Shown here piece by piece: positions 1 to 56,986 of a stretch of 57,536 bases of DNA. Source of the stretch: Nitrospira sp. (GTDB lineage Bacteria; Nitrospirota; Nitrospiria; Nitrospirales; Nitrospiraceae); the NCBI GenBank assembly GCA_023248215.1, contig JAHFEW010000014.1:5706-63241 (forward strand), in the 5' to 3' direction. Position numbers and translations under genes: made by a program. The notes beneath the pieces were generated by a model, which made no database searches, was not told where the DNA came from, and was given only the letters and a program-made list of their open reading frames with translations. Every line of letters starts with the position of its first letter. Within the stretch, counting starts at the first letter, position 1.

Positions 1-2
1 TG

Positions 3-230: not shown

Positions 231-232
231 CC

Positions 233-541: not shown

Positions 542-567
542 AACCCTTGAAGCGCATCCCGATGTAA

Positions 568-639: not shown

Positions 640-677
640 TTCCGATTGCTCACGCCTCACGAACGACGACCGGGGAG

Positions 678-717
678 GACGGCCTTTTTGACCATCCTGC
701 GAGATACGCTTCACGAT
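678..717 (-). repeat. Fragment A of the CAGGATGG dispersed element plus the CGTGAAGCGTATCTCG motif
   Basis: Bases 678-700 read gacggcctttttgaccatcc followed by tgc, matching one terminus of the dispersed element described at 16911-17037. Bases 699-715 are the reverse complement of CGTGAAGCGTATCTCGC, a second repeated motif also found at 6721-6738 and 34668-34685. Read on the minus strand, the order is Nudix stop codon, CGTGAAGCG motif, element end. The T-run after GGCC could terminate plus-strand transcription. Confidence 0.65.
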
Positions 718-731
718 TCACGGGATGCTGC

Positions 732-1274
732 TTACGATTTCATCCGGGGAAAGACACTGCCGAAGTGCATGGGGAATGTGCCGCGGGCCACATCCGCGAC
801 GTAGCGTTCGAGGGCTTCATGGATCACAGGAAAGGCCAGGTCATCCCACGGAATGTCGCTCAGGGCAAACAGTTGCACGTCGAGGCTCTCCGTGCCGGGT
901 TTGAATTCCGGCGTGCGCATCGTCCCGCGGAAGACCATATGGACCTGGCTGATGCGCGGCAGACTCAGCACCGCATACAGGGACGTGATCTCCACGTGGG
1001 CATGGGCCTCTTCGAAGGTTTCGCGGATCGCGGCCTCCTCGGTGCTTTCCCCGATTTCCATGAAGCCCGCGGGAAAGGTCCAATGGCCGGAGCGCGGTTC
1101 GATCGCCCGCCGGCAGAGCAGGATCTTGTCTTCCCACTCGGGAATGCAGCCGGCGACGATTTTGGGATTGATGTAGTGGATGGCCTGACAGGTATCGCAC
1201 ACGAACCGCGGCAGGTTATCGCCGGGTGGGATCTTTGATGATAACCCGGCCCCACATTCAGAGCAAAACTTCAT
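732..1274 (-). CDS. Nudix hydrolase with N-terminal zinc ribbon
   Basis: Nudix enzymes hydrolyse nucleoside diphosphates linked to another moiety, such as NADH, ADP-ribose or dinucleoside polyphosphates, using Mg2+. Residues 4-29 form a zinc ribbon (C4, C7, C26, C29), as in NudC-type NADH pyrophosphatases. The Nudix box is at about 70-92: G-x5-E-x7-R-E-x2-E-E is intact, but the glycine that normally closes the box is histidine (EEAHA). At 180 residues the protein lacks the extra N-terminal domain of full NudC. Its ATG overlaps the upstream region of the divergent methyltransferase gene, so the two probably share a promoter region. Substrate cannot be told from sequence. Confidence 0.88.
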   Translation of the reverse strand: MKFCSECGAGLSSKIPPGDNLPRFVCDTCQAIHYINPKIVAGCIPEWEDKILLCRRAIEPRSGHWTFPAGFMEIGESTEEAAIRETFEEAHAHVEITSLYAVLSLPRISQVHMVFRGTMRTPEFKPGTESLDVQLFALSDIPWDDLAFPVIHEALERYVADVARGTFPMHFGSVFPRMKS

Positions 1275-1302
1275 GACAGCTCCTGATCACACAGCGAAGA
1301 GA

Positions 1303-2487: not shown

Positions 2488-2605
2488 TCATTGTTCGTTC
2501 GTCGTTCGTGAAGCGTCGTTCGTCTCTCGTCGTTTGCGAAGGACGATTCACGAGACACGATGTTGCGCAATACATTTCAGGCGGCACAGCTGCCGGACAC
2601 GTCGC

Positions 2606-2635
2606 TTGACACCAAAGGTGAAAGGCTCCTATTTT
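2606..2635 (+). promoter_or_regulatory. Candidate sigma-70 promoter upstream of otsA
   Basis: TTGACA at 2606-2611 is followed by an 18-base spacer and TATTTT at 2630-2635. The start codon of otsA is about 370 bases downstream, with a copy of the dispersed element between them. The promoter may therefore serve otsA through a long leader, or may be decayed. Confidence 0.4.
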
Positions 2636-2718
2636 CAAACGAGCAGGCCATTTAAAAAACAATTTACGGACTCGAAATATACGAAGCCGTGTAACACTCG
2701 CAGGATCAGAAGCGCCCA

Positions 2719-2956
2719 CGGGATGTTCAAAAAGGCTGCCAGCGCGGCCGCAGCGAGGTCCACGGCGCGAAGAATAATGAGCGCCACGTTTGTGGACGCC
2801 GGTGAGACGGTGAGCTGGCCGTGTCTTCGGCGGAGGCGTCACGTTCTTACCCGCCCACCCCGAGCCTGCCGAGACAGGCTCTGTTCCCATGGGGGGTACG
2901 TTGAGGTTCTGAGCGATGCGAGAACAAAGCTGGCGGACTTTTTCAACATCCTGCTA
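2719..2956 (+). repeat. Dispersed CAGGATGG element, long copy B
   Basis: The left end (gggatgttcaaaaaggctgc, 2720-2739) and right end (ggcggactttttcaacatcc, 2932-2951) are inverted copies of each other. Internal landmarks shared with other copies are the gcggccgcagcgagg stretch (2745-2759), gcgccacgtttgtgga, the small hairpin gcctgccgagacaggc and gagcgatgcgagaacaaagc. It ends in CTAG like copies E and G. It fills most of the otsA upstream region. The rest of the 2488-3005 gap holds tandem CGTTCGT-like low-complexity sequence at 2493-2560 and no convincing gene. Confidence 0.75.
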
Positions 2957-3005
2957 GAGGTCTGATGCACCATTCAACCACTCACGCAAAGGAATCTGGA
3001 AGCGT

Positions 3006-4532: not shown

Positions 4533-4644
4533 TCGTCGCCGCGACAACCGGCGTCGGGTGAGAGGGTCTGTGATCGGCACCGCATCGTCTTACATCTCCT
4601 TTCTATTTTCCTCCCACGGTCCACGTACTTCTCACAGGGGACCT

Positions 4645-6681
4645 GTGAGGCTTGACTCATGCTGCGTCACCGGCCGCCTGCTCTCGCTCGTGGCGATGGT
4701 GGGCCTCTTGCTCCTGCTTGGCGCTTGCACACAGACCTCGCACCTGTTTTCCGTCACCCGGCCGCCCGACCGGCTGGTGGATCGGCAACAACAGGCGATC
4801 GTGTCGCGGATGCGGGCCATCGCCGAACCAGACCTACGCGACAATCTCAACAGCGGTCTCCCGGCGGTTCGTGTGAGCCTGGCGGACCAGACCAACAAGA
4901 TCGCCAAATTCAAGCGTGGCCTGGTGCTGCGCACGCTCGCCGATCCCTGGGACGGACTTTCGACGATTGAGCGGGCCGGTCTGCTGGCCGCAGGAGCAGC
5001 GGAGTCAGGCGTCGAGGGACTTCCTGCCGTGATCGATATCCTTGAAGGAAGCATGGAGCGCACCGGTACGCCCTTTGCGCCGCTCACCTTCCCTGTCACC
5101 CTCGCACGCGAGGATCTCCTGGGTTTTCTCATGGAGGTCCTTGAGGATGCCTATCAAGACCGTGAACATGCGCTGCGCCATCTGTCTCCACAGGATCGAG
5201 AATGGTTGTTCACGCAGGCCCGCCCCCTCGTGGAACAATTCAGCCCTCAAATCACTCCGCCCGTCCAGTTCTCCGACGCCGAAGCCGCAGCCAAATACGC
5301 CACCCTGCTCATGCAACAGGTCGACTATGCCTCTCTGATCACCGCCGCACAACGATTGGCGCGGCTCGGCAATCGGAAATTTCTGCAGCAGTTGGACATT
5401 GTGTTCCACAACAGAACACCGATCGCCCATTCGATTCCCGGCATCACGGGCGATGTGCTCCTTGCTCAGCAGACCCCGTACGGATTGCTCCTCGTGGGCG
5501 GCCGCGGTCCGAATACCTACGACCTGGAGAAGGGCGCCGCGCTGATCATCGATCTCGGCGGCAACGACACCTACCGTGGATTCATCGGCGCGAGCGCGAA
5601 CAGTGATCTAGGCAACAGCATCGTCATCGACTTGAGCGGTAACGATACTTATCAGCCCGCCCCACTGGGGCTCGCCACGGGACGAGGAGGAATCGGCATC
5701 GTCATCGACCATGGCGGGAACGATACCTATCACTTGGCACCAGGCTCCGGCGGGGTCGGGCTGGCGGGGCTTGGCATCCTGTATGATGGAGAGGGGCAGG
5801 ATATTTACGAGGGCAGCCGTTTCACCCAAGGTGCGGCCTTCGGCGGATTCGGCTTGCTGGTGGATCGCGCCGGGGACGATCGGTATACGAGCTTCGGTTA
5901 TGCACTTGGATTCGGCGCCCCCTTGGGTGTGGGTGCGGTCATCGATGCGTCCGGAAACGATTCGTACGAATGTGGCGGGCGATATCCTAGCGCCTACAAT
6001 GCGGCCGACGCCCCGGAGGCGCAACCTCACGAAACCACCTATCAATACGATTGTTTCGGACTGGGCACGGGGTCAGGACTCCGCGTCTTCAGCAAGAATC
6101 CGGCGCAACGCGCACTCAGTCTGGCGGGCGGCTGGGGGTTGCTGATCGATCTGGATGGCAACGATCGCTACCGCAGCGCGAACTTTTCTCAAGGGCACGG
6201 ATATTTTTTCGGCCTCGGCGTGAAGCTGGATCTCAATGGTGACGACGATCATCAGGCAGCTCGTTATGGTCACGGCACGGCCGCCCACTTCGGCGTCGGC
6301 CTGATCGTCGATTACCAGGGGAAGGACCGGTATGGCTCAAAGGGACCGTTCTACAACGGCGGTGCGGCATGGGACGGAAGCGTCGCCCTCGCCATCGACG
6401 GCGGCATGACGAGTGACTTCTACGACCTGCCGGCCTCGACCGGCTTGGGCATGGGCGACCTCGGAGGATGGGGACTCTTCATTGAAGAAGGCGGCGCCGA
6501 TCAATATGCGGCCAGCCGGGGGCTGGGACATGGTGCGGATACCAGCATCGGCGCCTTTTTTGATCTCGACGGCAGAGACGACTATTCCTCCGTCCCCCCA
6601 GCGACCCAAGGCTCACATCCGGAACGACTCAATCGGAAAGTCTACATCGAGAACCCTGGCAGCCTCTTCATCGACCGGTAG
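4645..6681 (+). CDS. Lipoprotein with about eleven G-x-D-x-Y repeats
   Basis: I chose GTG 4645 because caggggacct gives a ribosome-binding site and the protein then begins with a signal peptide (arginine, hydrophobic stretch VAMVGLLLLL) ending in the lipobox LLGAC. Residues up to about 290 are helical. The second half repeats a unit of roughly 25-40 residues built as hydrophobic-I-D-x-x-G-x-D-x-Y, for example GGNDTY, SGNDTY, AGDDRY, SGNDSY and DGNDRY, eleven times between 5563 and 6580. The spacing of glycines and aspartates suggests a calcium-binding beta-roll or beta-helix on the outside of the cell. It is not the RTX nonapeptide (GGxGxDxUx). I do not recognise the family. The stop codon TAG is directly continued by a copy of the dispersed element. 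Confidence 0.8.
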   Translation: MRLDSCCVTGRLLSLVAMVGLLLLLGACTQTSHLFSVTRPPDRLVDRQQQAIVSRMRAIAEPDLRDNLNSGLPAVRVSLADQTNKIAKFKRGLVLRTLADPWDGLSTIERAGLLAAGAAESGVEGLPAVIDILEGSMERTGTPFAPLTFPVTLAREDLLGFLMEVLEDAYQDREHALRHLSPQDREWLFTQARPLVEQFSPQITPPVQFSDAEAAAKYATLLMQQVDYASLITAAQRLARLGNRKFLQQLDIVFHNRTPIAHSIPGITGDVLLAQQTPYGLLLVGGRGPNTYDLEKGAALIIDLGGNDTYRGFIGASANSDLGNSIVIDLSGNDTYQPAPLGLATGRGGIGIVIDHGGNDTYHLAPGSGGVGLAGLGILYDGEGQDIYEGSRFTQGAAFGGFGLLVDRAGDDRYTSFGYALGFGAPLGVGAVIDASGNDSYECGGRYPSAYNAADAPEAQPHETTYQYDCFGLGTGSGLRVFSKNPAQRALSLAGGWGLLIDLDGNDRYRSANFSQGHGYFFGLGVKLDLNGDDDHQAARYGHGTAAHFGVGLIVDYQGKDRYGSKGPFYNGGAAWDGSVALAIDGGMTSDFYDLPASTGLGMGDLGGWGLFIEEGGADQYAASRGLGHGADTSIGAFFDLDGRDDYSSVPPATQGSHPERLNRKVYIENPGSLFIDR

Positions 6682-6738
6682 CAGGATGGTGAAAATGTCC
6701 GCCGGCTGTGCGTTCGACCCCGTGAAGCGTATCTCGTC
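6679..6738 (+). repeat. Dispersed element fragment C plus CGTGAAGCGTATCTCGTC motif
   Basis: The stop codon TAG (6679-6681) runs directly into caggatggtgaaaatgtccg, the left end of the dispersed element. Only about 28 bases of the element remain. They are followed by CGTGAAGCGTATCTCGTC at 6721-6738, an exact 18-base match to the reverse strand at 34668-34685. Confidence 0.7.
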
Positions 6739-6748
6739 TTGCCGAAAC

Positions 6749-6800
6749 ATGTTCAATGCTCAATTCTCAATTAAACACTGAAAATTGAACACTGAGCATG
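6749..6800. repeat. AT-rich imperfect palindrome, copy 2
   Basis: The arm atgttcaatgctcaattctc (from 6749) is mirrored by attgaacactgagcat (6785-6800). It is the same family as 568-639. It lies between the lipoprotein gene end and the lon promoter, so a transcription-terminator or mRNA-end role is plausible. Confidence 0.6.
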
Positions 6801-6840
6801 ACGGCGGTCGGCCATTCGCCCTCCTCTCCAAAACCTGCGC

Positions 6841-6868
6841 TTGACTCACCCTCTCTTATGGCTATCTT
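6841..6868 (+). promoter_or_regulatory. Candidate sigma-70 promoter of lon
   Basis: TTGACT at 6841-6846, a 16-base spacer and TATCTT at 6863-6868, about 85 bases before the lon start. I see no CIRCE inverted repeat or obvious sigma-32 promoter, so heat control is not evident from the sequence. Confidence 0.5.
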
Positions 6869-6952
6869 AACAAACAATAACGAACGTGAGCGTTCCTTTA
6901 GTACCCGTCACGCAGCTTTCACCCGATGACCATCCGCACACCGGAGGATGAT

Positions 6953-9352: not shown

Positions 9353-9394
9353 CAGTTGGTTCTATGGTTCCGGTCCTGTAAGAAGCCGTTGGTT

Positions 9395-9445
9395 GGTGAG
9401 ACACAGGCATGGTAACGTATCCCCATCAACCTGTGTCTCATCACC
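9395..9445 (+). other. Long-stem hairpin between lon and msrB
   Basis: gagacacagg (9398-9407) pairs perfectly with cctgtgtctc (9430-9439), and ggt/acc pairs lie just outside the stem. The loop is 22 bases and there is no T-run, so it is not a typical terminator. It sits 20 bases before the msrB ribosome-binding region, which suggests an RNA structure or operator controlling msrB. Confidence 0.45.
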
Positions 9446-9466
9446 CAAGTGGAATGAGGGGGAATT

Positions 9467-9892
9467 ATGGGCGACAAGATCGATATCGGCCCGATTGTAA
9501 AGCTAACCAAACCCGAGAGTGAGTGGCAGAAGCAGCTCACGCCCGAGCAATATCAAGTGCTGCGGCATGAGGGGACCGAGCCACCGTTCAAGAACGCCCT
9601 ACACGACAATAAAAAGCCCGGCATCTACCAATGCGCCGGATGCGAGCTGCCGCTTTTCTCATCCGTTCATAAGTTCGACAGTGGCACGGGCTGGCCGAGC
9701 TTTTGGCAGCCGTTGGCACCTGAAGTCGTCGGCACCAAGACGGATTACAAGATCATCTTTCCCCGCACGGAAGTCCATTGCGCCCGTTGCGACGGCCATC
9801 AAGGGCACATCTTCAAGGACGGCCCACCCCCAACCGGACTGCGCTACTGTATCAATTCGGCGGCGCTGAAATTTATTCCGGCCCAACATTAA
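9467..9892 (+). CDS. msrB: Peptide-methionine (R)-S-oxide reductase
   Basis: MsrB reduces methionine-R-sulfoxide in oxidised proteins, using thioredoxin. The 141-residue protein has the structural zinc cysteines C56/C59 (CAGC) and C105/C108 (CARC), the substrate region SGTGWPSFW, and the catalytic Cys128 in GLRYCINS. GHIFKDGPPPTG is the usual loop before the active site. It has no signal peptide, so it is cytoplasmic and not fused to MsrA. gaggggg lies 5 bases before the ATG. It lies downstream of lon, separated by a long-stem hairpin, and may have its own promoter. Confidence 0.96.
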   Translation: MGDKIDIGPIVKLTKPESEWQKQLTPEQYQVLRHEGTEPPFKNALHDNKKPGIYQCAGCELPLFSSVHKFDSGTGWPSFWQPLAPEVVGTKTDYKIIFPRTEVHCARCDGHQGHIFKDGPPPTGLRYCINSAALKFIPAQH

Positions 9893-9973
9893 TCGAGCAC
9901 GTCTGTCTGAACTAAGACGGCCGTTGCCCAAGGAGTCCGGCACGGCATCGTCCCCGGAATGTGACGCTGAAGC

Positions 9974-10002
9974 TTGCTATTTGCCGATGCCCCTCCTAGA
10001 CT
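9974..10002 (+). promoter_or_regulatory. Candidate promoter with near-leaderless start
   Basis: TTGCTA (9974-9979), 17-base spacer, TAGACT (9997-10002). The predicted transcript start falls only a few bases before the ATG at 10013, and there is no ribosome-binding site there. The same -10 hexamer and spacing occur at 11240-11268. Confidence 0.45.
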
Positions 10003-10012
10003 ACCCCATCCC

Positions 10013-11194
10013 ATGTCCATCTTCTCGTCGATACGACCGACTTTCTGCCTCTTGATTGCCTGGGCTGCGGTCCTCGGTTGCTCACAGTCCTCCGACGTGA
10101 TCTCGACGAATCTCAATGCTTGCTTGATCGTGACCGAAGCCGATGTCGAGTTGGCCATCGGAACCCCCGTCGCCACGGGCGTGCGTCAAAACGACCGGCA
10201 ATGCCTCTACCAGGCCAAACGCAATCCACAAGAGACGGTGACGGTGGAACTCAATCCCGGGCCGGACGGGAACAAGAAGAGCCTGTTCCACGACCAGCGA
10301 TCGAAAACCGGCCATCAACCGGTCCCAGGAATCGGTGACGGAGCCTTCACGCTCCGATCTCCTATCGGCGGCATTCAGCTGACCTTTTTGAAGGACGATG
10401 CGCTGGTGACCTTGTCGCTCTCCTCTCCCAAACAAGCCAATCCGCAGGCTGCTGTCACGAGCCTCGCCAAGGTTGCCGCGACCAGGCTCGCAAGCCCACT
10501 CCCCACTGTTGCCACTGCGTCGGCCACCACTGCGCCGACTGGATCGGGCCTGACAGGCGGACCGTCACAATGGGCCGGTGATTGGTATGGGTGCGTCCCC
10601 GTCGGATTGATGTATGGCAAGGGCCATCTCGCCCTGAGCGAGCGTGCCGACTGGACCCTGACGACTGCGGTGGTGATGCCGGGAACGGTGGTGGCAGACC
10701 GCGGACGTTGGCAAGCCGAATCGTACCAGGAAATTCTTCACGGAACCTATCAGGTCGCGGGGAACGATCGTTTCTCGACGACCGGCATCCTGAGTGTCAC
10801 CTGGAACAAGCTCCCGAAGAACCAAGGGCCGAATAAGTTCGATCCGCTCCTCTGGCAATCATTCGGGGCCATCCCACGCAAAATCGCCGTCAAGCGTCTG
10901 ACGCCGGTGGAACCGGCTCTCGTGGGCACCTGGGAAGGCTCGGCCAAGTTCGTCGATCGGCAGGAGGAGTTTGTCTGGACGATTACCTCAGCTAACGTGT
11001 CGGAGTTTTACAAGGCGACATCCCAGACAGGCCGGATCGAGCCGGAACAGGATCGGTTCAAGCTGGTCGCCTCTCAGAGCAAAAGGCCTCCCCTTTCGAT
11101 GCGTGTTCTGGCCCAAGACAAAATGGAGTTGACCGACAATAGCGGCACGGTCTCCCAATGGAACAGGAATGAAAAGCTGCTGTCTCGTTGTTAG
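10013..11194 (+). CDS. Putative lipoprotein of unknown function
   Basis: Starting at ATG 10013 the protein has a signal peptide and a lipobox-like AAVLGCSQ, so Cys23 is the likely lipidation site. Residues 35-150 contain an ACLIVTEADVELAIG start and a CLYQ strand, loosely like DUF3558-type domains of lipoproteins. A threonine- and alanine-rich linker (around 170-185) joins it to a C-terminal half rich in W and G strands (WAGDWYGC, GTWEGSAKF, WTITSANVSEFYKA) that looks like a lipocalin-type small barrel. I cannot assign a function. The start lacks a ribosome-binding site but lies just after a strong -10 element, so the mRNA may be nearly leaderless. Confidence 0.8.
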   Translation: MSIFSSIRPTFCLLIAWAAVLGCSQSSDVISTNLNACLIVTEADVELAIGTPVATGVRQNDRQCLYQAKRNPQETVTVELNPGPDGNKKSLFHDQRSKTGHQPVPGIGDGAFTLRSPIGGIQLTFLKDDALVTLSLSSPKQANPQAAVTSLAKVAATRLASPLPTVATASATTAPTGSGLTGGPSQWAGDWYGCVPVGLMYGKGHLALSERADWTLTTAVVMPGTVVADRGRWQAESYQEILHGTYQVAGNDRFSTTGILSVTWNKLPKNQGPNKFDPLLWQSFGAIPRKIAVKRLTPVEPALVGTWEGSAKFVDRQEEFVWTITSANVSEFYKATSQTGRIEPEQDRFKLVASQSKRPPLSMRVLAQDKMELTDNSGTVSQWNRNEKLLSRC

Positions 11195-11239
11195 CCCGCC
11201 TGGTTCATCACCCTCAACCGATATTCTCCGATCACGCGC

Positions 11240-11268
11240 TTGACTGCTTTTTCGCCGGTCGATAGACT
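11240..11268 (+). promoter_or_regulatory. Candidate promoter giving a leaderless mRNA
   Basis: TTGACT (11240-11245), 17-base spacer, TAGACT (11263-11268). The ATG at 11275 is 7 bases after the -10 box, exactly where transcription would begin. Confidence 0.5.
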
Positions 11269-11274
11269 GTTTCC

Positions 11275-11676
11275 ATGGTCGGTTTTTTCCTCACTGCCCT
11301 GCTCCTGACTGCCACGCCGCTGTCGGCGGCGAAAGATCATGCCATGCCGCTTGAAGACCTAGGCCGTCCCGTCGCGAATGAAGCGTTCGACAAGACCATG
11401 CCTGGAAGCCTCCTGCGCGGGTTGTTCGACCAGGCCTTGGCGACTCTACAGGAATACGTTGAGGTGGAAGGGACTCTGCCGTCTCATGAACCGCGGCGTG
11501 TAGGAGAATTCCGCCTGAAATTTTTCCCGCAAGGCAAATCGCTCTCGCAGGACCATCTGTCCGCCGAAGGATCGTTCCGCCTCACACCAGATGCCGACCA
11601 GCAGGAATTCACCCTTCGTTTCAAATCTTCCAAGAATCCACAGCGCCCAGTTCCGCCTCTCAGCGACGTGCTCTAA
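11275..11676 (+). CDS. Small secreted protein of unknown function
   Basis: The 133-residue product begins with a signal peptide (FFLTALLLTATPLSA, then AKDH). The mature part contains a helix (EAFDKTMPGSLLRGLFDQAL) and strands with VEVEGTL, GEFRLKFFPQGKS and AEGSFRLTPD that suggest a small beta-rich periplasmic domain. I recognise no family. The promoter places transcription initiation at or next to the ATG, and there is no ribosome-binding site, so translation may start on a leaderless message. It shares this arrangement with the preceding lipoprotein gene. Confidence 0.7.
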   Translation: MVGFFLTALLLTATPLSAAKDHAMPLEDLGRPVANEAFDKTMPGSLLRGLFDQALATLQEYVEVEGTLPSHEPRRVGEFRLKFFPQGKSLSQDHLSAEGSFRLTPDADQQEFTLRFKSSKNPQRPVPPLSDVL

Positions 11677-11707
11677 AATCTCTGAATAATTCCTCTCTGT
11701 TCTCTCT

Positions 11708-12225
11708 TCACGCCTCACTCCGATCCGGACTCCCCTCATCTACCCCGACGGGGGCATCTCGACCACGGGCCTTGGATGGACAACCGGTCCACCATGTCTT
11801 ACCCACTCGGTCGGGCGTGCCGGGCCGGAGCACCACAGAATTGCTCCCGTTGATCACATCACCCTTGCCGTTCTCGCTCTTGACGAGTGCATAACCGGGG
11901 CATAGAATAAACACTCGTTCACGATCCGCCTCATTCTGGAGGTGGTAGCTATGATCTTCCGTGGAGCGCAAATCCACCGGGATGGACATGGCAAGTGCGG
12001 CCTCCTCCCCAAACGAACTCTTTCCAGCAATAGCGCCGAGTTGTCTTCTTCGGGCGTGCTGGCGCCCAGTGGGGTGACCCTCCCCAACTTCTGGCCGCGC
12101 GTGATCGTCTCCAACCGCGAGGGGCAGCATGTGGCCGGCTGTCAGGGCCGGAATCCGTTCCATGTGCGCGAGCAAGATGTCTGGGGACACCTGCCGGAGG
12201 TGCCCATACGTTACGTAATTGCAAC
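11708..12225 (-). pseudogene. Degraded gene of unknown family with two frameshifts
   Basis: On the minus strand, protein-like sequence moves between two frames. It starts as YVTYGHLRQVSPDILLAHME and runs to about 12118, changes frame to continue ETITRGQKLGRVTPLGAS, and changes back near 12025 to give FGEEAALAMSIPVDLRST and a tail with VVLRPGTPDRVGKTWW. The two shifts compensate. An in-frame TAA closes the frame upstream near 12265. The TYGHL stretch resembles the end of some tyrosine recombinases, but this is weak. Either the gene is dead or the sequence has indel errors. The rest of the 11677-12397 gap shows nothing convincing. Confidence 0.4.
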
Positions 12226-12397
12226 CAGTCTCATGTCGACCGCACTGTTATTGGATGGGCTCTCGTTGAACGCTCGGAGCAGAGGAACCAACGCCCTCGC
12301 CACAATGCAGCACTACGCACCAGTGCGGCGTATGGCATAGTGGCGTGAAGGCGCGCGGAGAAAGGACTCGCGCGGTTCGCGCGCGAGGGAGTGGCTT

Positions 12398-12577
12398 ATG
12401 TCAGGGATATATTGGGGAATCGTGGCATGGCTCTTGGCGATGGTGGCAACCTTGTTCGTCTGCGTAGACATCATGTATTCCAAGACGAAGGGGTCGTCCA
12501 ATGCATCAAGCGGCAGAGTCGAGGAGCCGAATGAGGCAGTCAGGCAAGCCTCAGCCGGCTCCCGTCAGGCTGCATAG
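12398..12577 (+). CDS. 59-residue single-span membrane protein
   Basis: ATG at 12398 is preceded by gcgagggagtggctt, a good ribosome-binding site. The product starts MSGIYWGIVAWLLAMVATLF, a single membrane helix, followed by VCVDIMYSKTKG and a short polar tail rich in S, E and A ending in RQAA. It falls below usual gene-length cut-offs. It resembles in size and plan the gene at 12944, which lies just past a copy of the dispersed element. Function unknown. Confidence 0.55.
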   Translation: MSGIYWGIVAWLLAMVATLFVCVDIMYSKTKGSSNASSGRVEEPNEAVRQASAGSRQAA

Positions 12578-12670
12578 GTGCACCCGAAAGGCCTAAGCAG
12601 GCTGCGGAATCTATTTTGGTGCCCGCACGGCTCAGTGACCTGGAGGTCTGGGTCCAGGGGAGAGGACCAA

Positions 12671-12909
12671 GCGGGATACGCAAAAAGGCCGTCCAGCGCG
12701 ACCGCAGGGACGCGAGGGGGCGGGGCGTGTCCTTCTTACCCCCCGTCCGAGCCTGCCGAAACAGGCTCTGTTCCCATGGACGTACGTTGAGCCTCCGAGG
12801 TTCACGACGCGCTGAATAAAGCGCGTCACGTTTGTGAACGCCGTCGAGATAGTGAGGCGGCAGTGTCTTGTGAGAACAAAGCTGGAGGCCTTTTTTAGCA
12901 TTCCGCGAG
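12671..12909 (+). repeat. Dispersed CAGGATGG element, long copy D
   Basis: The left end is gcgggatacgcaaaaaggcc at 12671-12690 and the right end is ggaggccttttttagcattc, ending near 12904. Internal landmarks shared with copies B and F are gagcctgccgaaacaggctc (hairpin, 12749-12768), cacgtttgtgaacgc and gagaacaaagctgg. It is more diverged at both ends than copies E and G. It lies about 95 bases downstream of the 12398 gene. Confidence 0.7.
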
Positions 12910-12943
12910 ACGATTTTCGTTGTTCAGTCAACGGAGGTGCCCT

Positions 12944-13111
12944 ATGGTCGAGATCATTGGTCTCGGAACGATGATCGCGCTTGTGTGGCTGCTCGCCTGG
13001 TCGATGGCGGGTGAGAGTGAGTCTGAGAAGAGGCGGATTGGTGCGTCTCGTGAGGGCGGTCGCTCCGTCGGAAGCCTCGCACACGAAACACGAACCAGGC
13101 ACGCAGCCTAA
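12944..13111 (+). CDS. 55-residue single-span membrane protein
   Basis: ATG 12944 follows acggaggtgcccta, a clear ribosome-binding site; an earlier in-frame start at 12920 is less likely. The product has one membrane helix (MIALVWLLAWSMA) and then a basic, serine-rich tail with EKRRIGASREGGRS. Same plan as the 12398 gene. Function unknown; the strong ribosome-binding site is the main support. Confidence 0.55.
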   Translation: MVEIIGLGTMIALVWLLAWSMAGESESEKRRIGASREGGRSVGSLAHETRTRHAA

Positions 13112-13265
13112 TCTTGGATTTCTTCCGGGCACATGCACAACCCGGTGCGTCCTCTTGCTCCGGCAAGAGAGACGTGGAGGGAAGGTGTAGGTTTGTCCCG
13201 CGTGCCGCTCTACCAGAGGGAAGAGGCCTGCGGATGACGGAGGGTTTGTCTTGTGATGGGGAGTG

Positions 13266-14549
13266 TCAGGTAAGAATCTGCGGTTGCCCGATCCCGGCAA
13301 TGACCTCTTCCGTGATCACCACGGATTTCACCCCGCCCAGCGCCGGGACGTCATACATGAGGTCCAACATCACCTCTTCCAGGATCGTGCGTAGCGCCCG
13401 TGCCCCGGTTTTCATCACGGCCGCCCGGCGGGCGACGGCTTTGACCGCGGAATCGGTAAACTGGAGCTCGACCCCTTCGATCTCGAAGAGGGCCTGATAC
13501 TGCTTCACCAACGCGTTGCGTGGCTCCGTCAGGACGCGAATGAGCGCAGGCACATCGAGGTCTGACAGGGTGCTCAGGACAGGGAAGCGGCCCACAAACT
13601 CGGGAATGAGTCCGAATTTCAGCAGATCATCGGATTGCACGCGGCGCAGCACGTCGGTGTGGCCGTCGATCTCGACTGCGGGACTGATCGCTCCAAACCC
13701 CAGTCGCTTGGGCATCGTCCGTTGGGCAATGATCTGATCCAACCCGACGAACGCCCCGCCCGCGATGAACAGAATGTTCGTCGTGTCCACACGAATGTAG
13801 TCTTGTTCAGGATGCTTCCGTCCGCCTTTGGGCGGCACATTGCAGATCGTCCCTTCGACCAGCTTCAGGAGCGCCTGCTGCACACCCTCGCCTGACACAT
13901 CGCGTGTCAGGGACGGATTCTCCGACTTGCGACTGATCTTGTCGATTTCATCGATGTAGATGATGCCGGTCTCGGCGCGTGTGACGTCGTAATCGCAGCT
14001 CTGCAGCAGCTTGAGGACGACGTTCTCGACATCCTCGCCCACGTACCCGGCCTCCGTCAGGGCCGTGGCATCCGCAATGGTGAAGGGCACATGAAGGATG
14101 CGAGCCAGGGTCTGGGACAGGAGTGTCTTCCCCGTTCCGGTCGATCCAATCATCAGAATGTTGCCCTTTTGGAGGTCGACGTGTTTGAGCCGCTCCCGGT
14201 TCACAATACGTTTGTAATGATTGTGGACCGCAACGGAGAGGATTTTCTTGGCGCGATCCTGCCCAATCACATAGTCATCAAGCGTCGCTTTGATGTCGGT
14301 CGGCTTGGGGATCACGAGCGGCAGGGACGAGGACGAACCCTGCGTGCCATGATTCGTGTCTTTGCTCAGGGACAGGGCACAGCGCTGAATGCATTCCTCA
14401 CAGATCAACAGCGCAGACGTCGTCTGGCAGGAATGGCAGGTGTATGGTTCGGGACTGGTGATGAGGTGCTGAACCGCGTCCTGATGCTTGCCGCAGAATG
14501 AACAGAGACGCTCTGGTTTCTGCGAAGGATGCCGCGTGTCCCAGAACAC
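13266..14549 (-). CDS. clpX: ClpX-type AAA+ unfoldase with an expanded cysteine cluster
   Basis: ClpX unfolds tagged proteins and feeds them to ClpP. I chose GTG 14549, with cggagg 9 bases upstream, which gives 427 residues, the usual ClpX length. The N-terminal zinc domain has the standard C16/C19/C38/C41 spacing, but it is followed by three further cysteines (C50, C53, C57 in [11 protein letters not shown]), like a partial duplication of the second zinc knuckle. Walker A is GSTGTGKT near 136-142, the pore loop is GYVGEDVE and the docking loop reads LGFGA. No clpP or tig is adjacent, unlike the classical tig-clpP-clpX order, so this may be a second paralogue with its own adaptors. Confidence 0.9.
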
Positions 14550-14799
14550 AGCTTTTTCCTCCGTGCTGCCAGGTGAACGGGCGTGGCGATGCGTTATCTT
14601 ATGCCTCACCCACGCTGAACTGCAAGCGGGCGACGATCTGAGTTTGCTCCCGACCAGAGGTTTCCTCAATCTATCCGCACAGGAACAATCAGAGATGAAA
14701 GAGAGTGCGAAAGGACGCCGGGATGCCGGCCCAGGCAGATGGAAGGGTGTGGGAGGAATTCCCCGTGAACGGGGCAGAGGCGATGCGACTTGAGAGGAT

Positions 14800-15549
14800 T
14801 TAGAAGCGGAACCCGAGACCGCCCGAAATGATGTGCGTGCGATAATTCAGCGTGAACGAGGGGCCGTGTGATCCATTTGCGAGTTCACTTTCCCACTGAT
14901 AATTTGCGACGAAATATTTGTATTCCGTAAACAGAAACACACGGTCGCTCACGTTCGCGCGCACACCGCCGAGAAACTGATAGGCAAACGCGCCGTCGCC
15001 CGCGTTCTCACGGATGACACCGATCGTGCTCTGTTGGAGATTCAAATCCCGTGCGAACCCTCCGGACAACCCCGCCCCGACACCGATATAGGGCTGAATG
15101 ACCTCGCCAGGATAACGCAGCAACAGATTCGCCATGGCATTGATGGACTGGAGGCGGAAATTCGCGCTGCGCGTCACACCGCCAGTTGTGGCCATGGGCG
15201 CATTGACCTTTCCGTCGAGTCCGGAAAATTCGGCCTCCAGTCCCACGACACGCCCAGCGAACGCCGGGAACACACCGACTTTCAATCCGCCGCCCAGCCC
15301 TCCCTGCACGTCGGTGTTCGTGAAGGGGTCGTCCTGCAGTCTTACCGGACGATTAAGGGGAAAACTGCCCTGCATGAAGAGACTCACATAGAACTCGGTC
15401 TTCTCCTTTGCCTGTGAGGCATCGGGCACCGATGCCGGAGCCTTGCCGGCACTCGAAGCAGGATCGGCTGCCAGGGCAGCAGAGGGACTCCCCCCGAAGA
15501 GCAAACAACTAAACATCAACGCAGCCACCGACACTCTTGTTGATCGCAT
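14800..15549 (-). CDS. Outer-membrane beta-barrel protein
   Basis: The 249-residue precursor has a signal peptide ending near ALA and a mature part with alternating amphipathic strands: [82 protein letters not shown], and the closing strand [10 protein letters not shown] with the terminal phenylalanine typical of outer-membrane proteins. This is the eight-stranded OmpA-like/OMP_b-brl pattern. A role in outer-membrane structure or adhesion is possible, but none can be assigned. It stands alone between clpX and a decayed regulator gene. Confidence 0.82.
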
Positions 15550-15723
15550 TGATCTCTCCTTTGGGTGAGCAGCGCGGCAGGACCGAACCGGTCTGCATCA
15601 TGTCACTCATAACACGGGAGCTCTGCGTGACAAACAGATTCGGCGGTTTCCACGGAGATGTCGCACGCAGCAGGCTTCCGTAACGCCCGCGCCAGGAAAC
15701 CTTTCCGACAGTGAGAAGGAAGG

Positions 15724-16100
15724 CTATCGTGCAGGAATGGAATGGCCGTAGTAGGAGGCAAAAGGTTCGTGGATTTTTCCCGCCAGTAATCGCGGGGTGT
15801 AGGGCTTAGGAAGAAACCACCCGCCCATGACGCCATCGAAATTGGGCTCCGACACCAGGCCGGATAGAAAGAGAACGGGAAGATCATGATAAAAGGATCG
15901 AAGCCGTTGAGCCAGCGTCGGTCCGGACATGATTGGCATCACGATATCTGCTTCGAGATCCCGACCCGTTCCGGTCCCGCCTCGAAGATTCGTACGGCTT
16001 CGTCACCGCTGGTGGCTCACAGCACGCGAAAGCCTTGCATCTCCAACATGGTGCCGGTGAGATCGCACAGCGCCCTCTCGTTCTCCACGAGCAATACCAT
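15724..16100 (-). pseudogene. Response-regulator receiver domain, inactivated
   Basis: The minus strand reads GMVLLVENERALCDLTGTML and EMQGFRVL, then hits TGA at 16017-16019. The same frame continues with ATSGDEAVRIFEAGPERV. A frameshift near 15950 leads into a second frame, ADIVMPIMSGPTLAQRLRSF, followed by VLFLSGL and LPKPYTPRLL. Together these are a nearly complete CheY-like receiver with the phosphoacceptor D in ADIVMP and the K in PKPY. A stop plus a frameshift make a working product very unlikely. It could be the C-terminal receiver left from a hybrid kinase. The flanks 15550-15723 and 16101-16245 show nothing else. Confidence 0.75.
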
Positions 16101-16245
16101 GCCCTGAAGGGAATCTGTCGTGATAGAAGCCGGCTGCGGGTGCGTCATAGGTGCAGGTGATGATCTCGACAGTCACCCGTAGCATGCCGAATGCATTGCG
16201 TCAAAACGACCAGACCTCTAACGCATGGCTGGGTCCGTCCGCGTG

Positions 16246-16824
16246 CTACCCCTCGCTGAGAAATTTTTGGATCCACTGTACCGGCATGAGACCGGCCAAC
16301 ACAGCTCGATCCGGCCTTTCCAGAATTGGCACGCCTTGATGTTCCGTGTCGATCCATTGTTTCTCCCAGATGCGCAACAGAGGCTCGACCGCAATGGCAT
16401 CCACCCCGGCGATGAGCGCCGGAGCGAAACCCTGGCGTTCGGCTTCCTGCTGCAGTACGGCCTCATTGGAAAGGTCTTGGCCGTCCACCCAAAACAACCG
16501 GTACAACGATCGTGTCAAAGCCTGTGCTCGTGCGTGATCGAGCTGCAGGGCACGAGCTGCCGCGGCAATCGCGCGCCTGGTATTGGGTTTTCCACGCGGC
16601 ACTGTAATCGACAGCTCAGGCGCCAGCCGGCGGACCGCCTCAACTTCCAGCTTCAATTCGGCAGCCATATACCCCGACCATGTCGGCATCGGCAGTGGGA
16701 GATGGGACGCATGTTGGATGCCGCGCCAGGAGACTCGATCCATCACGCCAAGGGCATGGAGGCGCTCATGCATCGCATAGCAGAAGGGACAATTGAAATC
16801 GCTGTACAACCGGTAGGGGTTCAT
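16246..16824 (-). CDS. DsbA-family thioredoxin-fold oxidoreductase (FrnE/HCCA isomerase type)
   Basis: The 192-residue protein begins YRLYSDFNCPFCYAMHERLH, a thioredoxin-fold strand with C12-P-F-C15. Residues 40-160 are the all-helical insertion typical of DsbA, with a helix starting NTRRAIAAAARALQLD. The cis-proline region is GVPILERP. There is no signal peptide, so it acts in the cytoplasm, like FrnE-type disulfide oxidoreductases and 2-hydroxychromene-2-carboxylate isomerase relatives. The CPFC motif favours a redox role. It lies downstream of a dispersed-element copy and faces no clear partner. The physiological substrate is unknown. Confidence 0.8.
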   Translation of the reverse strand: MNPYRLYSDFNCPFCYAMHERLHALGVMDRVSWRGIQHASHLPLPMPTWSGYMAAELKLEVEAVRRLAPELSITVPRGKPNTRRAIAAAARALQLDHARAQALTRSLYRLFWVDGQDLSNEAVLQQEAERQGFAPALIAGVDAIAVEPLLRIWEKQWIDTEHQGVPILERPDRAVLAGLMPVQWIQKFLSEG

Positions 16825-16910
16825 CTCATTACCAGCAGCCTGCTAAAAACAAGTCGGTGCTTTCGAATACCGATAGAGCGCAGCCTATGCGACGACGAGG
16901 AACTAGCTCG

Positions 16911-17037
16911 CAGGATGGTCAAAAAGGCCGTCCAGCGAGGCCGCAGCGAGGCGAGGGGGCGAGGCGTACCCTTGCGGTACGTGGAGCCTCTGAGCGATGC
17001 GAGAACAAAGCTGACGGCCTTTTTCACCATCCTGCTA
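16911..17037 (+). repeat. Dispersed CAGGATGG element, short copy E (best preserved)
   Basis: Termini are CAGGATGGTCAAAAAGGCC (from 16911) and GGCCTTTTTCACCATCCTG (ending 17034), nearly perfect inverted repeats, extended by CCGTC/GACGG. Between them lie gcgaggccgcagcgaggcg, a gtacccttgcggtac hairpin (16967-16981) and gagcgatgcgagaacaaagc. The last bases CTAG hold the stop codon (17035-17037 on the minus strand) of the cyclase gene. The GC stem followed by TTTTT on both strands fits a bidirectional terminator. This copy lacks the extra internal block of copies B, D and F. Confidence 0.8.
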
Positions 17038-17847
17038 GGGTAGAATGGCGATGATACGCACGGGAGCTCCCGTGCCACCGGCGATCTTCATCGGCAAAGC
17101 CACGATCGTGGCGCCGGAGGGAGGGACTTCTTCGAGTCGCGCCACGTTTTCGAGACCATACAGACCGGCTACGCTGAGAATCCGGTGGACCACAAAATCC
17201 TGAGAGCCCCCATAGTCGATGCTGGGCGTATCAATCCCGACACCATGGATGTGTCGTTCGGCCACCAGAAACTCCGCGACTTCTTTTGAGAACCCAGGAA
17301 AATGGAGCGTCGCAGCAAGATTCGGCGTGGCCGTGCCGAAATACCGCTCGCGATCCTTCCAGTAGGCGCCCCACCCTGTCAGCATCATAACGACCGCGCC
17401 GCTCGGTATTGTGCCATGCTTGGCCTCCCAGCGCTGAATGTCTTCCAACGATAAACGGTAGTCGCGATCGCCGGCCACAGCAGCTCGTACATCAATCACC
17501 ACGGCAGGCCCCATCAGGCGCTCGACGGGGATACCCTCGATCCCCGCTTGTCCCTGCGCAAAATGAACGGGAGCATCCATGTGGGTTCCGGCATGTTCCG
17601 ATAGCGCTACTTGTCCCGTCGCGTACCAGGCTTCGGTCGTCGTCCCTCCCCGCACCGTTGAGTCCCGGTGAAATGGAAGATTGCTCGGCCAGACCTGCGT
17701 GGTCTCGTCAAACGTATAGGTGAGGTCAACGAGACGCTGTGCGGCCTTGGCGTCACACCACAAGCTCGTGGCGATCAGCAGGACGAACAACCCGACGGCC
17801 CGAGAAAGCGTCGCAGACCGATTGCCCTTTTGTTCTCTGTTCTCCAT
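17035..17847 (-). CDS. Secreted cyclase-family metal hydrolase (kynurenine formamidase-like)
   Basis: Members of the cyclase family are metal-dependent amidases or cyclases such as kynurenine formamidase and isatin hydrolase. The metal-binding signature H-x-G-T-H-x-D-x-P-x-H is intact at residues 85-95. I chose ATG 17847, with aaggag 5 bases upstream, which gives 270 residues with a signal peptide (AVGLFVLLIATSLWCDAKA). The enzyme is therefore probably periplasmic, which is less usual for kynurenine formamidase. It is divergent from the RuBisCO-like gene with 124 bases between the starts. Its TAG stop lies within the terminal CTAG of the dispersed element. The substrate cannot be told. Confidence 0.85.
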   Translation of the reverse strand: MENREQKGNRSATLSRAVGLFVLLIATSLWCDAKAAQRLVDLTYTFDETTQVWPSNLPFHRDSTVRGGTTTEAWYATGQVALSEHAGTHMDAPVHFAQGQAGIEGIPVERLMGPAVVIDVRAAVAGDRDYRLSLEDIQRWEAKHGTIPSGAVVMMLTGWGAYWKDRERYFGTATPNLAATLHFPGFSKEVAEFLVAERHIHGVGIDTPSIDYGGSQDFVVHRILSVAGLYGLENVARLEEVPPSGATIVALPMKIAGGTGAPVRIIAILP

Positions 17848-17971
17848 TGTTCTCCTTGTCGCGAAGCACAGGCCCATACCCACAGCGCTGCTGTGCGCCG
17901 AAGGACTACCGGCTTGGGCGGAAATACGGTACCCTCTCCCCCTCACAACTGCAACCTCGGAGGTGCCAGGC

Positions 17972-19138
17972 ATGCCGCAACGGTCAACCCAGGAAAGCGA
18001 CGTTCGGTTTTCTGGGCAGCGCTTTTCAGTGGAGTACCACATTCATGGATCTGCAGCAGAGGCACACGAGCGTGCGGATCTTCTCTGTATCGAACAGACC
18101 GTCGAGGCGGCCGATCACGTCATTCCGTCTGGAGCGATTCGGGACCAGCTGCTGGGCCGAGTGATTGAACTGGAATCCTTGAGCCCTGCGCTCCACCGTG
18201 CCGTGATAAGTTTTCCCACTGAACTCCTCGATGGATCCGTGAGTACCCTTCTTCACATGACATTCGGGATGGCCAGCTTACGAGGACAGGTCCGCGCCAC
18301 GGACCTGTCGCTCCCGGACGATATGGTCGCGCACATGGTCGGCCCTCGCTTCGGATCGCAGGGCCTTCGCGACCTGCTTCACGTGCCGCGGCGCCCGCTG
18401 ATCTGCGCCGTCTTGAAGCCGCTCGGGCTTTCTCCGCGACAGCTGGCCGCCCTGGCCCACCAATTTGCACTCGGTGAAGTCGATCTGATCAAGGACGACC
18501 AGAGCCTTGGCGACCACCCCTTCTGCCGATTCGAGGAGCGGATCGCACGATGCGCGGAAGCCATTGGCGAGGCTTCGCATCGAACAGGAAAAACTTGCCT
18601 GTATGCCCCCCATATTTCCAGTCCCTGGCCTATGCTCATGGAACGAGCCGGCCTGGCACAGAAAGCCGGCGCTGGCGCCCTTCTCGTCTGTCCGGGCCTC
18701 GTGGGCTTTGACGCCATGGCTTCCCTGGCAAGCCTCCCTTCGGTCTCGCTCCCCCTCATCTCGCACCCAGACTTTCTCGGGAGCCATTATGTATCGCCGG
18801 ACAGTGGCCTCGCCCCCTCAGTCATTTTTGGGCTCCTCCCCAGACTTGCCGGCGCCGACATCTCCATCTACCCCACTTTTGGACTGACGTACCCGATCTC
18901 ACAAGCAGACTGCCGGCAAATTGCGGCATCCTGTCGACGATCACTTGGCCTATGTCTACCGATCTTTCCAACCGCCGCAGGGAGAATGACCTCGTCGCGC
19001 ATCCATGAAATGGCAATGTTGTACGGCCAAGACCTGGTTTACGTTCTCGGCAGTGAGGTACGCCGGGAGCCACAGGAAACACACACCGCCTGCCTGGAGT
19101 TTCTCCGCCTGGTGGAGAAAGAGATGCCCAGCCCATAA
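17972..19138 (+). CDS. RuBisCO-like protein (form IV)
   Basis: RuBisCO-like proteins share the RuBisCO large-subunit fold but usually act as enolases or isomerases in sulfur metabolism, or have unknown roles. From ATG 17972 (ggaggtgccaggc upstream) the product has 388 residues. The loop LKPLGLS keeps the Lys149 equivalent of Lys175 but not Lys177. The carbamylation region reads LIKDDQSLGD, with Lys174 and Asp176 kept and Glu204 replaced by Gln177. The barrel continues with ISHPDFLGSH (His of strand 5), LPRLAGADISIYPTFG and a C-terminal FPTAAGRMTS. Loop 6 Lys334 is not recognisable, so CO2 fixation is excluded. It may be metabolically linked to the divergent cyclase. Confidence 0.85.
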   Translation: MPQRSTQESDVRFSGQRFSVEYHIHGSAAEAHERADLLCIEQTVEAADHVIPSGAIRDQLLGRVIELESLSPALHRAVISFPTELLDGSVSTLLHMTFGMASLRGQVRATDLSLPDDMVAHMVGPRFGSQGLRDLLHVPRRPLICAVLKPLGLSPRQLAALAHQFALGEVDLIKDDQSLGDHPFCRFEERIARCAEAIGEASHRTGKTCLYAPHISSPWPMLMERAGLAQKAGAGALLVCPGLVGFDAMASLASLPSVSLPLISHPDFLGSHYVSPDSGLAPSVIFGLLPRLAGADISIYPTFGLTYPISQADCRQIAASCRRSLGLCLPIFPTAAGRMTSSRIHEMAMLYGQDLVYVLGSEVRREPQETHTACLEFLRLVEKEMPSP

Positions 19139-23278: not shown

Positions 23279-23829
23279 AAAATCGCATTTGAATGCCCCG
23301 CCCGGAAGGGCGGGGATGAAAAATGCGTGCTGCCGGAGGCAGCAGCGATCCGGTAGAGTAGTGGCATGGCCATCAGACGAGCCAGCCACTGTGTGTACGA
23401 CACCTGCTATCATCTGGTGTGGGCGCCCAAGTATCGGAAATGGGTGTTGCAAGGGGCGATTCGGCAGCGGGTCAGGGAACTGTTTTGCGAGATTGCGGGG
23501 CATCACGGATTTGAGATTGAGGCATTGGAGGTGGACAAGGATCATGTCCATCTGTTTCTCAGTTTTCCGCCGAAGTACTCGATCGGCGCGGTGGTGGGGC
23601 TGCTGAAGGCGGTCAGCGCCAAGGAGATTCGGGAGGAGTTTCCGGAGGTCCGGAAGCAGCTGTGGGGCGGAGAGTGTTGGGAAGATGGGTATGTTGTTCG
23701 GACGGTGGGTGACAAAGTGACAGCCGATGTGATCAAGAAGTACATTCGGTTTCATGAGGCGAAGAAGAGAGGGGCTGAACAATTGGACCTCTTCTAGAAA
23801 GCCCCGCCCGGAAGGGCGGGGTTCTTTAC
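23279..23829 (+). mobile_element. IS200/IS605-family element with hairpin ends
   Basis: The same hairpin CCCCGCCCGGAAGGGCGGGG stands at both ends (23296-23315 and 23802-23821) in direct orientation around a single Y1 transposase gene. The left stem is extended by cgcattt/aaatgcg (23284-23290 and 23320-23326), the right one by gaaa/ttct. Borders are approximate. As expected for this family there are no terminal inverted repeats or target duplications. There is no tnpB gene, so it is an IS200-like minimal element. It lies inside an exported-protein gene. Confidence 0.85.
23366..23797 (+). CDS. tnpA: IS200/IS605-family HUH transposase TnpA
   Basis: TnpA cuts and joins single-stranded DNA at hairpin ends through a tyrosine-DNA link. 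The 143-residue protein has the HUH metal site at H60-V-H62 in KDHVHLFLSFPP and the catalytic Tyr126 in VTADVIKKYIRFH, both intact, and WAPKYRKWVL at the N-terminus as in IS200-type enzymes. The length is typical. It is the only gene of the element. Both end hairpins are preserved, so the element may still be active. Confidence 0.93.
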   Translation: MAIRRASHCVYDTCYHLVWAPKYRKWVLQGAIRQRVRELFCEIAGHHGFEIEALEVDKDHVHLFLSFPPKYSIGAVVGLLKAVSAKEIREEFPEVRKQLWGGECWEDGYVVRTVGDKVTADVIKKYIRFHEAKKRGAEQLDLF

Positions 23830-40627: not shown

Positions 40628-40799
40628 CAGGGCGTTGAAAAGGACCGCCAGCATCGTTCTCGCATCATTCAGACCCTCAACGTACCGCGCATGGGAAGGA
40701 GCCTGTCTCGGCAGGCGCGGGTGGGGCGGGTAAGAATATGACGCCTCGGCCCTTCATTCGCTGCGGCCTTGCTGGACGGCCTTTTTGAACACCCTGCGG
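40625..40799 (-). repeat. Dispersed CAGGATGG element, long copy F, reversed
   Basis: Starts directly at the stop codon: taa, then cagggcgttgaaaaggaccg. The other end is gacggcctttttgaacaccc at 40776-40795. The inside, read in reverse, shows gttctcgcatcattcagacc (the gagcgatgcgagaac block), gcctgtctcggcaggc and gctgcggcc. Orientation is opposite to copies B, D, E and G. Confidence 0.75.
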
Positions 40800-40881
40800 A
40801 CACTTCGATAGACACCGCAGCCAGGTGCTACCTTTCCTATCAAGTTGGCTCACAGATAGTTCTTCAGCAACCTCCTAGCGG

Positions 40882-56487: not shown

Positions 56488-56841
56488 AAACGCACCTCCG
56501 AAAAGCAGGTGGTTGTCGCGTGGCAGGTTTTTATCCATCAACCATGGAGGCGTTCTTCTTCCATTGTACGCCCGAGTTGTGAATGGGAACAGGGTCCCCT
56601 CCCCACGTCCGGATGCGGACGATCCCTCACCAACCGGCCTCACCGGGGGGATGGATCTGCAGGTTTTGGGAGAGGGGCCGACCATGCCGTGAAGAAACCC
56701 TGCGTCTCAGTGCGCCGCCGAGTCCGTTTCACAAAAACTCCCGACTTCGTGAGCGAGAGCGCCAGTAGGATGCTGAAAAACCATTGCGAGCCTTCGGAAA
56801 CACAGCAAGCGCGGAGTCGGAGACGGCATGGAGAGAGCCCA

Positions 56842-56986
56842 CAGGATGGTCAAAAAGGCCGTCCAGCCAGGCCGCAGCGAGGTGCACGGCGCGATGAATA
56901 AAGAGCGCCACGTTTGCGCACGGGCGCGAGTCGGTGAGCGCCCAGTGTCCCCACAAAGCTGGCGGACTGTTTCACCATCCTGCTAG
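56842..56986 (+). repeat. Dispersed CAGGATGG element, copy G
   Basis: Left end caggatggtcaaaaaggccg (56842-56861), right end gcggactgtttcaccatcct (56962-56981) followed by gctag. The middle holds ccaggccgcagcgagg, gcgccacgtttgcgca and cacaaagctgg. Its terminal CTAG carries the stop of the minus-strand gene at 56983-57339. It is intermediate in length between copies E and B. Confidence 0.78.

What the first reader, a model, noticed from the sequence alone, without database searches (positions are those of the whole stretch)
16911..17037. A family of dispersed palindromic elements with terminal inverted repeats, seven copies in 57 kb
Seen directly: copies at 678-700 (fragment), 2719-2956, 6679-6706 (fragment), 12671-12909, 16911-17037, 40625-40799 (reversed) and 56842-56986. 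Ends read CAGGATGGTCAAAAAGGCC and GGCCTTTTTCACCATCCTG. The interiors share gcggccgcagcgagg, gagcgatgcgagaacaaagc and, in long copies, a gcctgccgagacaggc hairpin. No ORF is conserved. This density and the mixed full and partial copies look like a MITE or REP-like family whose autonomous partner lies elsewhere.
Basis: partly seen in the sequence, partly recalled or inferred. Interest (0 to 1): 0.85.

Follow-up and report, generated by a model that had tools for sequence, protein, structure and literature searches.

The report
Mobile hairpin repeats at gene ends
The repeats are copies of a small non-coding transposon of nitrite-oxidising Nitrospira-type bacteria that borrows the ends and target site of a known kind of insertion sequence, carries a long conserved hairpin, and often lands exactly on the stop codon of a gene without changing the protein.

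Summary
The repeat family is real: 177 end matches genome-wide against 2 for a control pattern. Its boundaries were misread. The complete element is about 200 bp (up to 374 bp with extra modules), starts CAGG[AC]TGnnGAAAAA, ends in its inverted copy, and sits between 4-bp YTAR duplications: identical in 33 of 53 elements, shuffle mean 20.8, maximum 30. Relatives show empty sites at 7 of 12 young copies queried. The missing autonomous partner exists in sister species: 1.31-1.38 kb IS5-family elements with the same 16-18 bp ends and YTAR duplications; in the window's genome only a decayed relative was found. So it is a MITE, not a REP. Two unusual features: the ~120 bp core is a long hairpin with compensatory changes, invariant internal-loop motifs and a strand bias; and, because YTAR contains a stop triplet, about a third of copies sit exactly on a gene's stop codon, which the duplication restores. 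A terminator or RNA role is inferred, not shown.

The parts
652..703 (-). partial element: inner left arm (681-697) joined to a 'D' interior (CGTTCGTCGTTCGTGAGGCGT type)
2644..2953 (+). element e1, with flanking 4-mers CGAG (2640-2643) and CTAG (2954-2957); B module about 2758-2827, C hairpin 2860-2892; lies between the promoter-like site 2606-2635 and ORF 3006-4532
   Evidence: absent from G016 and G012
6678..6810 (-). decayed element e2; right end CAGGATGGTGAAAATG starts at 6682; GTAG at 6678-6681 includes the TAG stop of ORF 4366-6681
   Evidence: G001 and G007 lack 6683-6810; full elements at this place in G016, G018, G019
12598..12905 (+). element e3; C hairpin 12747-12779, B module about 12800-12869
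   Evidence: absent from G028 and other relatives
16836..17034 (+). element e4 (the cited copy), flanks CCAG 16832-16835 and CTAG 17035-17038; the CTAG holds the stop codon of the minus-strand ORF 17035-18042
   Evidence: same place, different modules, in relatives
16913..17032 (+). hairpin core of e4 (GGATGGTCAAAAAGGCC ... GGCCTTTTTCACCATCC)
   Evidence: family alignment A1
40628..40874 (-). element e6, flanks CTAA 40624-40627 (holds the TAA stop of ORF 40115-40627) and CTAG 40875-40878
56766..56982 (+). element e7, flanks CCAG 56762-56765 and CTAG 56983-56986; B module about 56882-56949

Best explanation
These are copies of a non-autonomous DNA transposon (MITE) of Nitrospira and close relatives. 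An IS5-family DDE transposase encoded by 1.3-kb insertion sequences recognises the shared end CAGGCTGCGGAAAAAC and inserts the MITE at a YTAR tetranucleotide, which is duplicated (ends, duplications, empty sites and partner elements are shown; movement in trans is inferred). YTAR contains TAG or TAA, so insertion exactly at a gene's stop codon leaves the protein unchanged, and about a third of copies sit there (shown). The cargo is a conserved hairpin of about 120 bp with A/T tracts at its base that would behave as a two-way transcription terminator or 3'-end RNA structure (inferred). Smaller repeats (modules B, C, D) have entered the hairpin at fixed points, giving the long forms (anatomy shown; mechanism unknown).
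For: Copies: 177 arm matches in the genome against 2 control; 46 of 61 genomes searched have the arm, no control hits in any. Ends and target: 33 of 53 elements have identical 4-mers on both sides (25 CTAG, 6 TTAG, 2 CTAA), 0 of 5000 shuffles reach 33. Young subfamily: 12 of 16 copies at 0.98 or more similarity to the reference copy, the reference included. Empty sites: 7 of 12 queried joined-flank sites are crossed by an uninterrupted alignment in at least one of 11 relatives, with a single CTAG or TTAG at the junction in three of them. Partner: 12 of 29 genomes match the transposase; ten copies have both ends 1.31-1.38 kb apart with TIR CAG[GT][CG]TG..GA[AC]AAAC, nine of ten with identical 4-bp flanks (TTAG, CTAG, CTAA, ATAG). 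Family: NF033581 IS5 family, 278.9 and 285.7 bits against cut-off 140. E. coli IS5 duplicates Py-T-A-Pu, mostly CTAG, then CTAA and TTAG (PMC5493358, passages). Stop codons: 17 of 50 own-genome elements (with one element entered twice removed) against 25 of 163 non-coding YTAR sites, p = 0.001; 11 of 33 in named relatives; at L050 the element-free relatives G019, G008 and G022 end the same protein at the same codon.
Against: No intact partner in the window's genome: one PF01609 match, a degenerate IS5 without these ends, and one broken relative at 62% identity. Similarity between MITE and IS stops after about 18 bp (subterminal score 7-9, shuffled mean 8.5). 20 of 53 elements do not have identical flanks. 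Copies with only the inner core show no evident duplication (by eye). Copy number does not track the partner: G007, G012 and G016 have many arms but no transposase match at 1e-20. The terminator scan of window 1-18000 is not above shuffled expectation (15 found, 15.6 expected). The own-genome orientation bias at stop codons (14 right, 3 left) did not recur in named relatives (7 right, 5 left).
Confidence: 0.9

Rival explanations
1. A REP/REPIN-type palindrome family moved as single-stranded DNA by a RAYT (Y1) transposase.
For: Hairpin structure and strand asymmetry; five Y1 transposase genes in the genome, three of RAYT-like size.
Against: None of the five genes is bounded by the arms; one element arm lies about 0.5 kb from an IS200-like gene in L203. 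The elements are 195-374 bp with 4-bp duplications, which this mechanism does not make (established knowledge), and share ends with a DDE element.
Confidence: 0.03
2. Vertically inherited structured RNA genes or terminators, amplified by recombination and not by transposition.
For: Some copies are at orthologous places across the genus; strong compensatory change.
Against: Near-identical copies at unrelated sites with duplications and empty sites.
Confidence: 0.05
3. A MITE as described, but its hairpin is kept only because the two arms repair each other or because the transposase needs it, with no effect on host RNA.
For: Arms covary at the variable base (185 of 210 Watson-Crick, 100 expected); the right arm doubles as the transposon end.
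Against: Nearly invariant unpaired motifs (GGCCGCAG, CGAGAAC) and a G-U over A-C bias on one strand (118 against 23) are not expected from arm-to-arm repair. Related sequences are not independent, so this is suggestive only.
Confidence: 0.45

Closest known systems
RUP of Streptococcus pneumoniae with IS630-Spn1 (PMC2229807, passages read)
   Same: Short, non-coding, about 100 copies per genome, intergenic, ends shared with an insertion sequence thought to move it in trans.
   Different: RUP uses IS630 and a TA target; here IS5 family, YTAR, plus a conserved hairpin core and modules.
BOX, RUP and SPRITE elements of S. pneumoniae (PMC10969869, passages read)
   Same: Elements insert into one another; SPRITE is terminator-like.
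   Different: Different host; sequence relation not tested; here the nesting points of module B are two fixed symmetric sites in one hairpin.
IS5 of E. coli (PMC5493358, passages read)
   Same: DDE transposase family and Py-T-A-Pu target with CTAG, CTAA, TTAG commonest.
   Different: The Nitrospira partner scores for NCBIfam IS5_4; here a passenger without transposase dominates in number.
Correia/NEMIS and ERIC/IRU elements (PMC2229807, passages read)
   Same: About 100-150 bp mobile repeats with inverted ends and TA at the termini.
   Different: Ends and target differ; sequence relation not tested.

Membership tests
MITE | terminal inverted repeats | tested here: met
   CAGG[AC]TGnnGAAAAA at both ends
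MITE | target site duplication | tested here: met
   33 of 53 identical 4-mers, YTAR; 0 of 5000 shuffles
MITE | short, too small to encode a transposase | tested here: met
   195-374 bp
MITE | many dispersed copies, some recent | tested here: met
MITE | autonomous partner with the same ends | tested here: met
   IS5-family elements in sister species
MITE | movement in trans by the partner's transposase | not testable with these tools
   needs an assay
IS5 family (the partner) | IS5-type DDE transposase | tested here: met
   NF033581, 278.9 and 285.7 bits, cut-off 140; Pfam DUF772 and DDE_Tnp_1. The more distant copies (L324, L325) stay below every NCBIfam cut-off
IS5 family (the partner) | YTAR 4-bp duplication as in IS5 | tested here: met
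   nine of ten complete copies with identical flanks, eight YTAR and one ATAG
REP/REPIN | 20-40 bp palindrome with a terminal tetranucleotide tag | tested here: not met
   size 195-374 bp, ends CAGG; REP definition from the abstract of PMC3733652 in the listing
REP/REPIN | association with a RAYT gene | tested here: not met
   none of five Y1 genes bounded by the arms
Known Rfam RNA family | match above gathering score | tested here: not met
   only two tRNAs in the window; no match at E<=1 for e4, one far below its gathering score for e3

The most novel reading that the evidence does not exclude
The MITE is a self-spreading 3'-end cassette: its IS5-type target lets it land exactly on stop codons without changing the protein, and its cargo is a conserved RNA structure, selected on one strand, that gives the gene a terminator or a 3' regulatory hairpin. 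Over time it has supplied Nitrospira with a notable share of its gene ends.
Probability: 0.25. Interest if true: 0.72.

Novelty: new variant of a known kind. Interest (0 to 1): 0.52.

Why it matters
It gives a clear IS partner for an abundant repeat family in an ecologically central group of nitrifiers, and shows how a transposon's target motif can coincide with stop codons so that insertion is harmless. If the hairpin works as a terminator or RNA element, it is a testable case of a mobile element distributing gene ends across a genus.

Tried and rejected
Y1/RAYT partner: five loci examined, rejected. IS701-type transposase (PF13546): no match in the own genome. The single own-genome PF01609 gene (L305): a degenerate IS5 without the ends. 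A 1.3 kb pair of arms on G000:C46 looked autonomous but holds no transposase. Plasmids and viral contigs: no match. Rfam: nothing. Solved structures: no match to the partner transposase. My first orientation filter used a wrong offset and kept only 20 elements; corrected. The core selection counted both strands and was replaced. Literature: the searches returned no listing that names this family; only PubMed Central open papers are held. Papers: PMC5767232, PMC12306157, PMC5493358, PMC10969869 and PMC2229807 were seen as passages only; PMC3733652 held none of the sought terms, and its REP definition is from the start of the abstract in the listing.

The gene positions rest on a simple codon-usage ORF caller that I wrote, not on annotation.

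Full report
What is there. The window is G000:C133:5706-63241 of a 4.69 Mb draft in 199 contigs. The arm motif occurs 177 times in the genome at up to two mismatches, against 2 for the reversed control, and in 46 of 61 genomes searched, densest in its own genus and family.

True boundaries. Reading 81 arm pairs with their flanks showed that the right end stops sharply after CATCCTGCTAG, while on the left conserved sequence runs on for about 80 bp to a second inverted repeat, CTAGCAGG[AC]TGnnGAAAAAC. Complete elements are mostly 198-202 bp; longer ones (up to 374 bp) hold extra modules. Some copies consist of the core alone.

Transposition signature. Of 53 complete own-genome elements (54 rows, one entered twice), 33 have the same 4-mer on both sides: 25 CTAG, 6 TTAG, 2 CTAA; shuffling gave a mean of 20.8 and never more than 30 in 5000. 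In 33 elements of named genomes 16 are identical. A young subfamily has 16 copies among those fetched; 12 have a similarity of 0.98 or more to the reference copy, the reference included. Flanks of 12 of these 16, joined at the target, were searched in 11 relatives: for 7 of 12 an alignment crosses the junction in at least one relative, and at three (L042, L050, L057) a relative shows a single intact CTAG or TTAG. The other five gave no crossing alignment in the loci read and say nothing. In the window, e3 is missing from G028 and others, e1 from G016 and G012, e2 from G001 and G007, while the 6679 and 16911 places hold elements in several other species. At the 16911 place the module content differs between species: core only (window, G018), core plus B (G001, G022), core plus C and B (G028), arms only (G010).

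Partner. The window's genome has one PF01609 gene, degenerate and without these ends, no PF13546, and one broken relative of the partner. In the genus, 22 of 29 genomes have PF01609 genes. Scanning 29 of those loci for the outer ends gave three bounded elements. A search with the G023 transposase found relatives in 12 of 29 genomes. The loci with a complete pair of ends at 1.31-1.38 kb number ten (L335, L336, L337, L340, L341, L342, L343, L347, L351, L352); nine have identical 4-bp flanks and L351 has CTAA/CTAG. A further pair at 1288 bp (L345/L348, CTAG/CTGG) holds a transposase split into two pieces and is not counted. The transposase is IS5 family by NCBIfam (278.9 and 285.7 bits, cut-off 140) with DUF772 and DDE_Tnp_1. 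Likeness to the MITE ends after about 18 bp. E. coli IS5 has the same target preference (PMC5493358, passages). Against a simple picture: G007, G012 and G016 have many arms and no transposase match; and the draft could lack a multi-copy IS.

Hairpin core. 43 diverse cores of 118-123 bp were aligned, chosen from 128 of that size. The consensus has 35 pairs, 22 with changes on both sides; 94.9% of cells pair against 87.6% shuffled and at most 43% slid, all five measures beyond 500 shuffles. The base at position 6 of the arm is Watson-Crick with its partner in 185 of 210 elements, 100 expected. Yet GGCCGCAG and CGAGAAC, which face each other largely unpaired, hardly vary. Folded as RNA, the left-to-right strand is more stable than its complement in 41 of 43, and G-U cells outnumber A-C cells 118 to 23, 62 of the 118 coming from two pairs. 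The rows are related, so the p-value there overstates the case. This suggests, but does not show, selection on an RNA (or one DNA strand).

Stop codons. YTAR holds TAG or TAA. With a simple ORF caller, 17 of 50 own-genome elements have an adjacent gene whose stop codon lies in the flanking 4-mer (18 of 51 rows, one duplicate removed), against 25 of 163 non-coding YTAR sites, p = 0.001. In named genomes it is 11 of 33 elements, 12 ends. At L050 the element-free relatives G019, G008 and G022 end the same protein at the same codon; a fourth, G001, did not align there. The 6679 and 16911 sites also keep the stop in place in element-free G001/G007 and G007. Divergent gene pairs are rare here (2 of 42 against 8 of 39 element-free gaps, p = 0.04) but not in named relatives (6 of 31). 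The right end faces the stop in 14 of 17 own cases but only 7 of 12 elsewhere, and the more stable RNA strand is not the one those genes transcribe, so a plain 'terminator for the abutting gene' does not explain everything.

Nested modules. The B module motif occurs 78 times in the genome against 4 control. Of 56 places read with context, 55 had an element-like arm within 260 bp, but some of these look by eye not to be in an element (L252, L019, L364) and one (L371) is solo. It sits at two symmetric GAG points of the core, and its stems vary in step (by eye). IS110-family transposase genes were found inside the MITE core in L177 and inside a B hairpin in G012.

Verdict. A MITE of the IS5 family: a known kind, with a clear partner. 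The stop-codon landing and the structured cargo make it a variant worth experiments.

Noticed in passing
window 23291-23821: IS200-like Y1 transposase (146 aa, about 23390-23749) between near-identical hairpins GAATGCCCCGCCCGGAAGGGCGGGG; a second copy at G000:C137:23929, differing at one residue.
   Followed up: partly
L371, L252, L019, L364 and most long elements: B module: a dispersed repeat of about 70 nt with two stems that vary in step, also found outside the MITE; what moves it is unknown.
   Followed up: partly
L177:2582-3884 and L263:8846-10168: IS110-family transposase genes inserted inside the MITE core and inside a B hairpin.
   Followed up: partly
L266, L267, L268, L263, L269 beside the 16911 site: Another palindromic repeat, CCCGGATTATTCATGAAT ... 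ATTCATGAATAGTCCGGGCTAA, next to the element in five relatives.
   Followed up: no
window 579-637 and 6753-6796: A/T-rich repeat TCAATGCTCAATT..TTAAACATTGAACACTGA, two copies.
   Followed up: no
L204 (G000:C97): RAYT-like gene flanked by a perfect 21-bp inverted repeat GAAAAGGGGTCGGGAGTCTTT, probably its own REP-like sequence.
   Followed up: no
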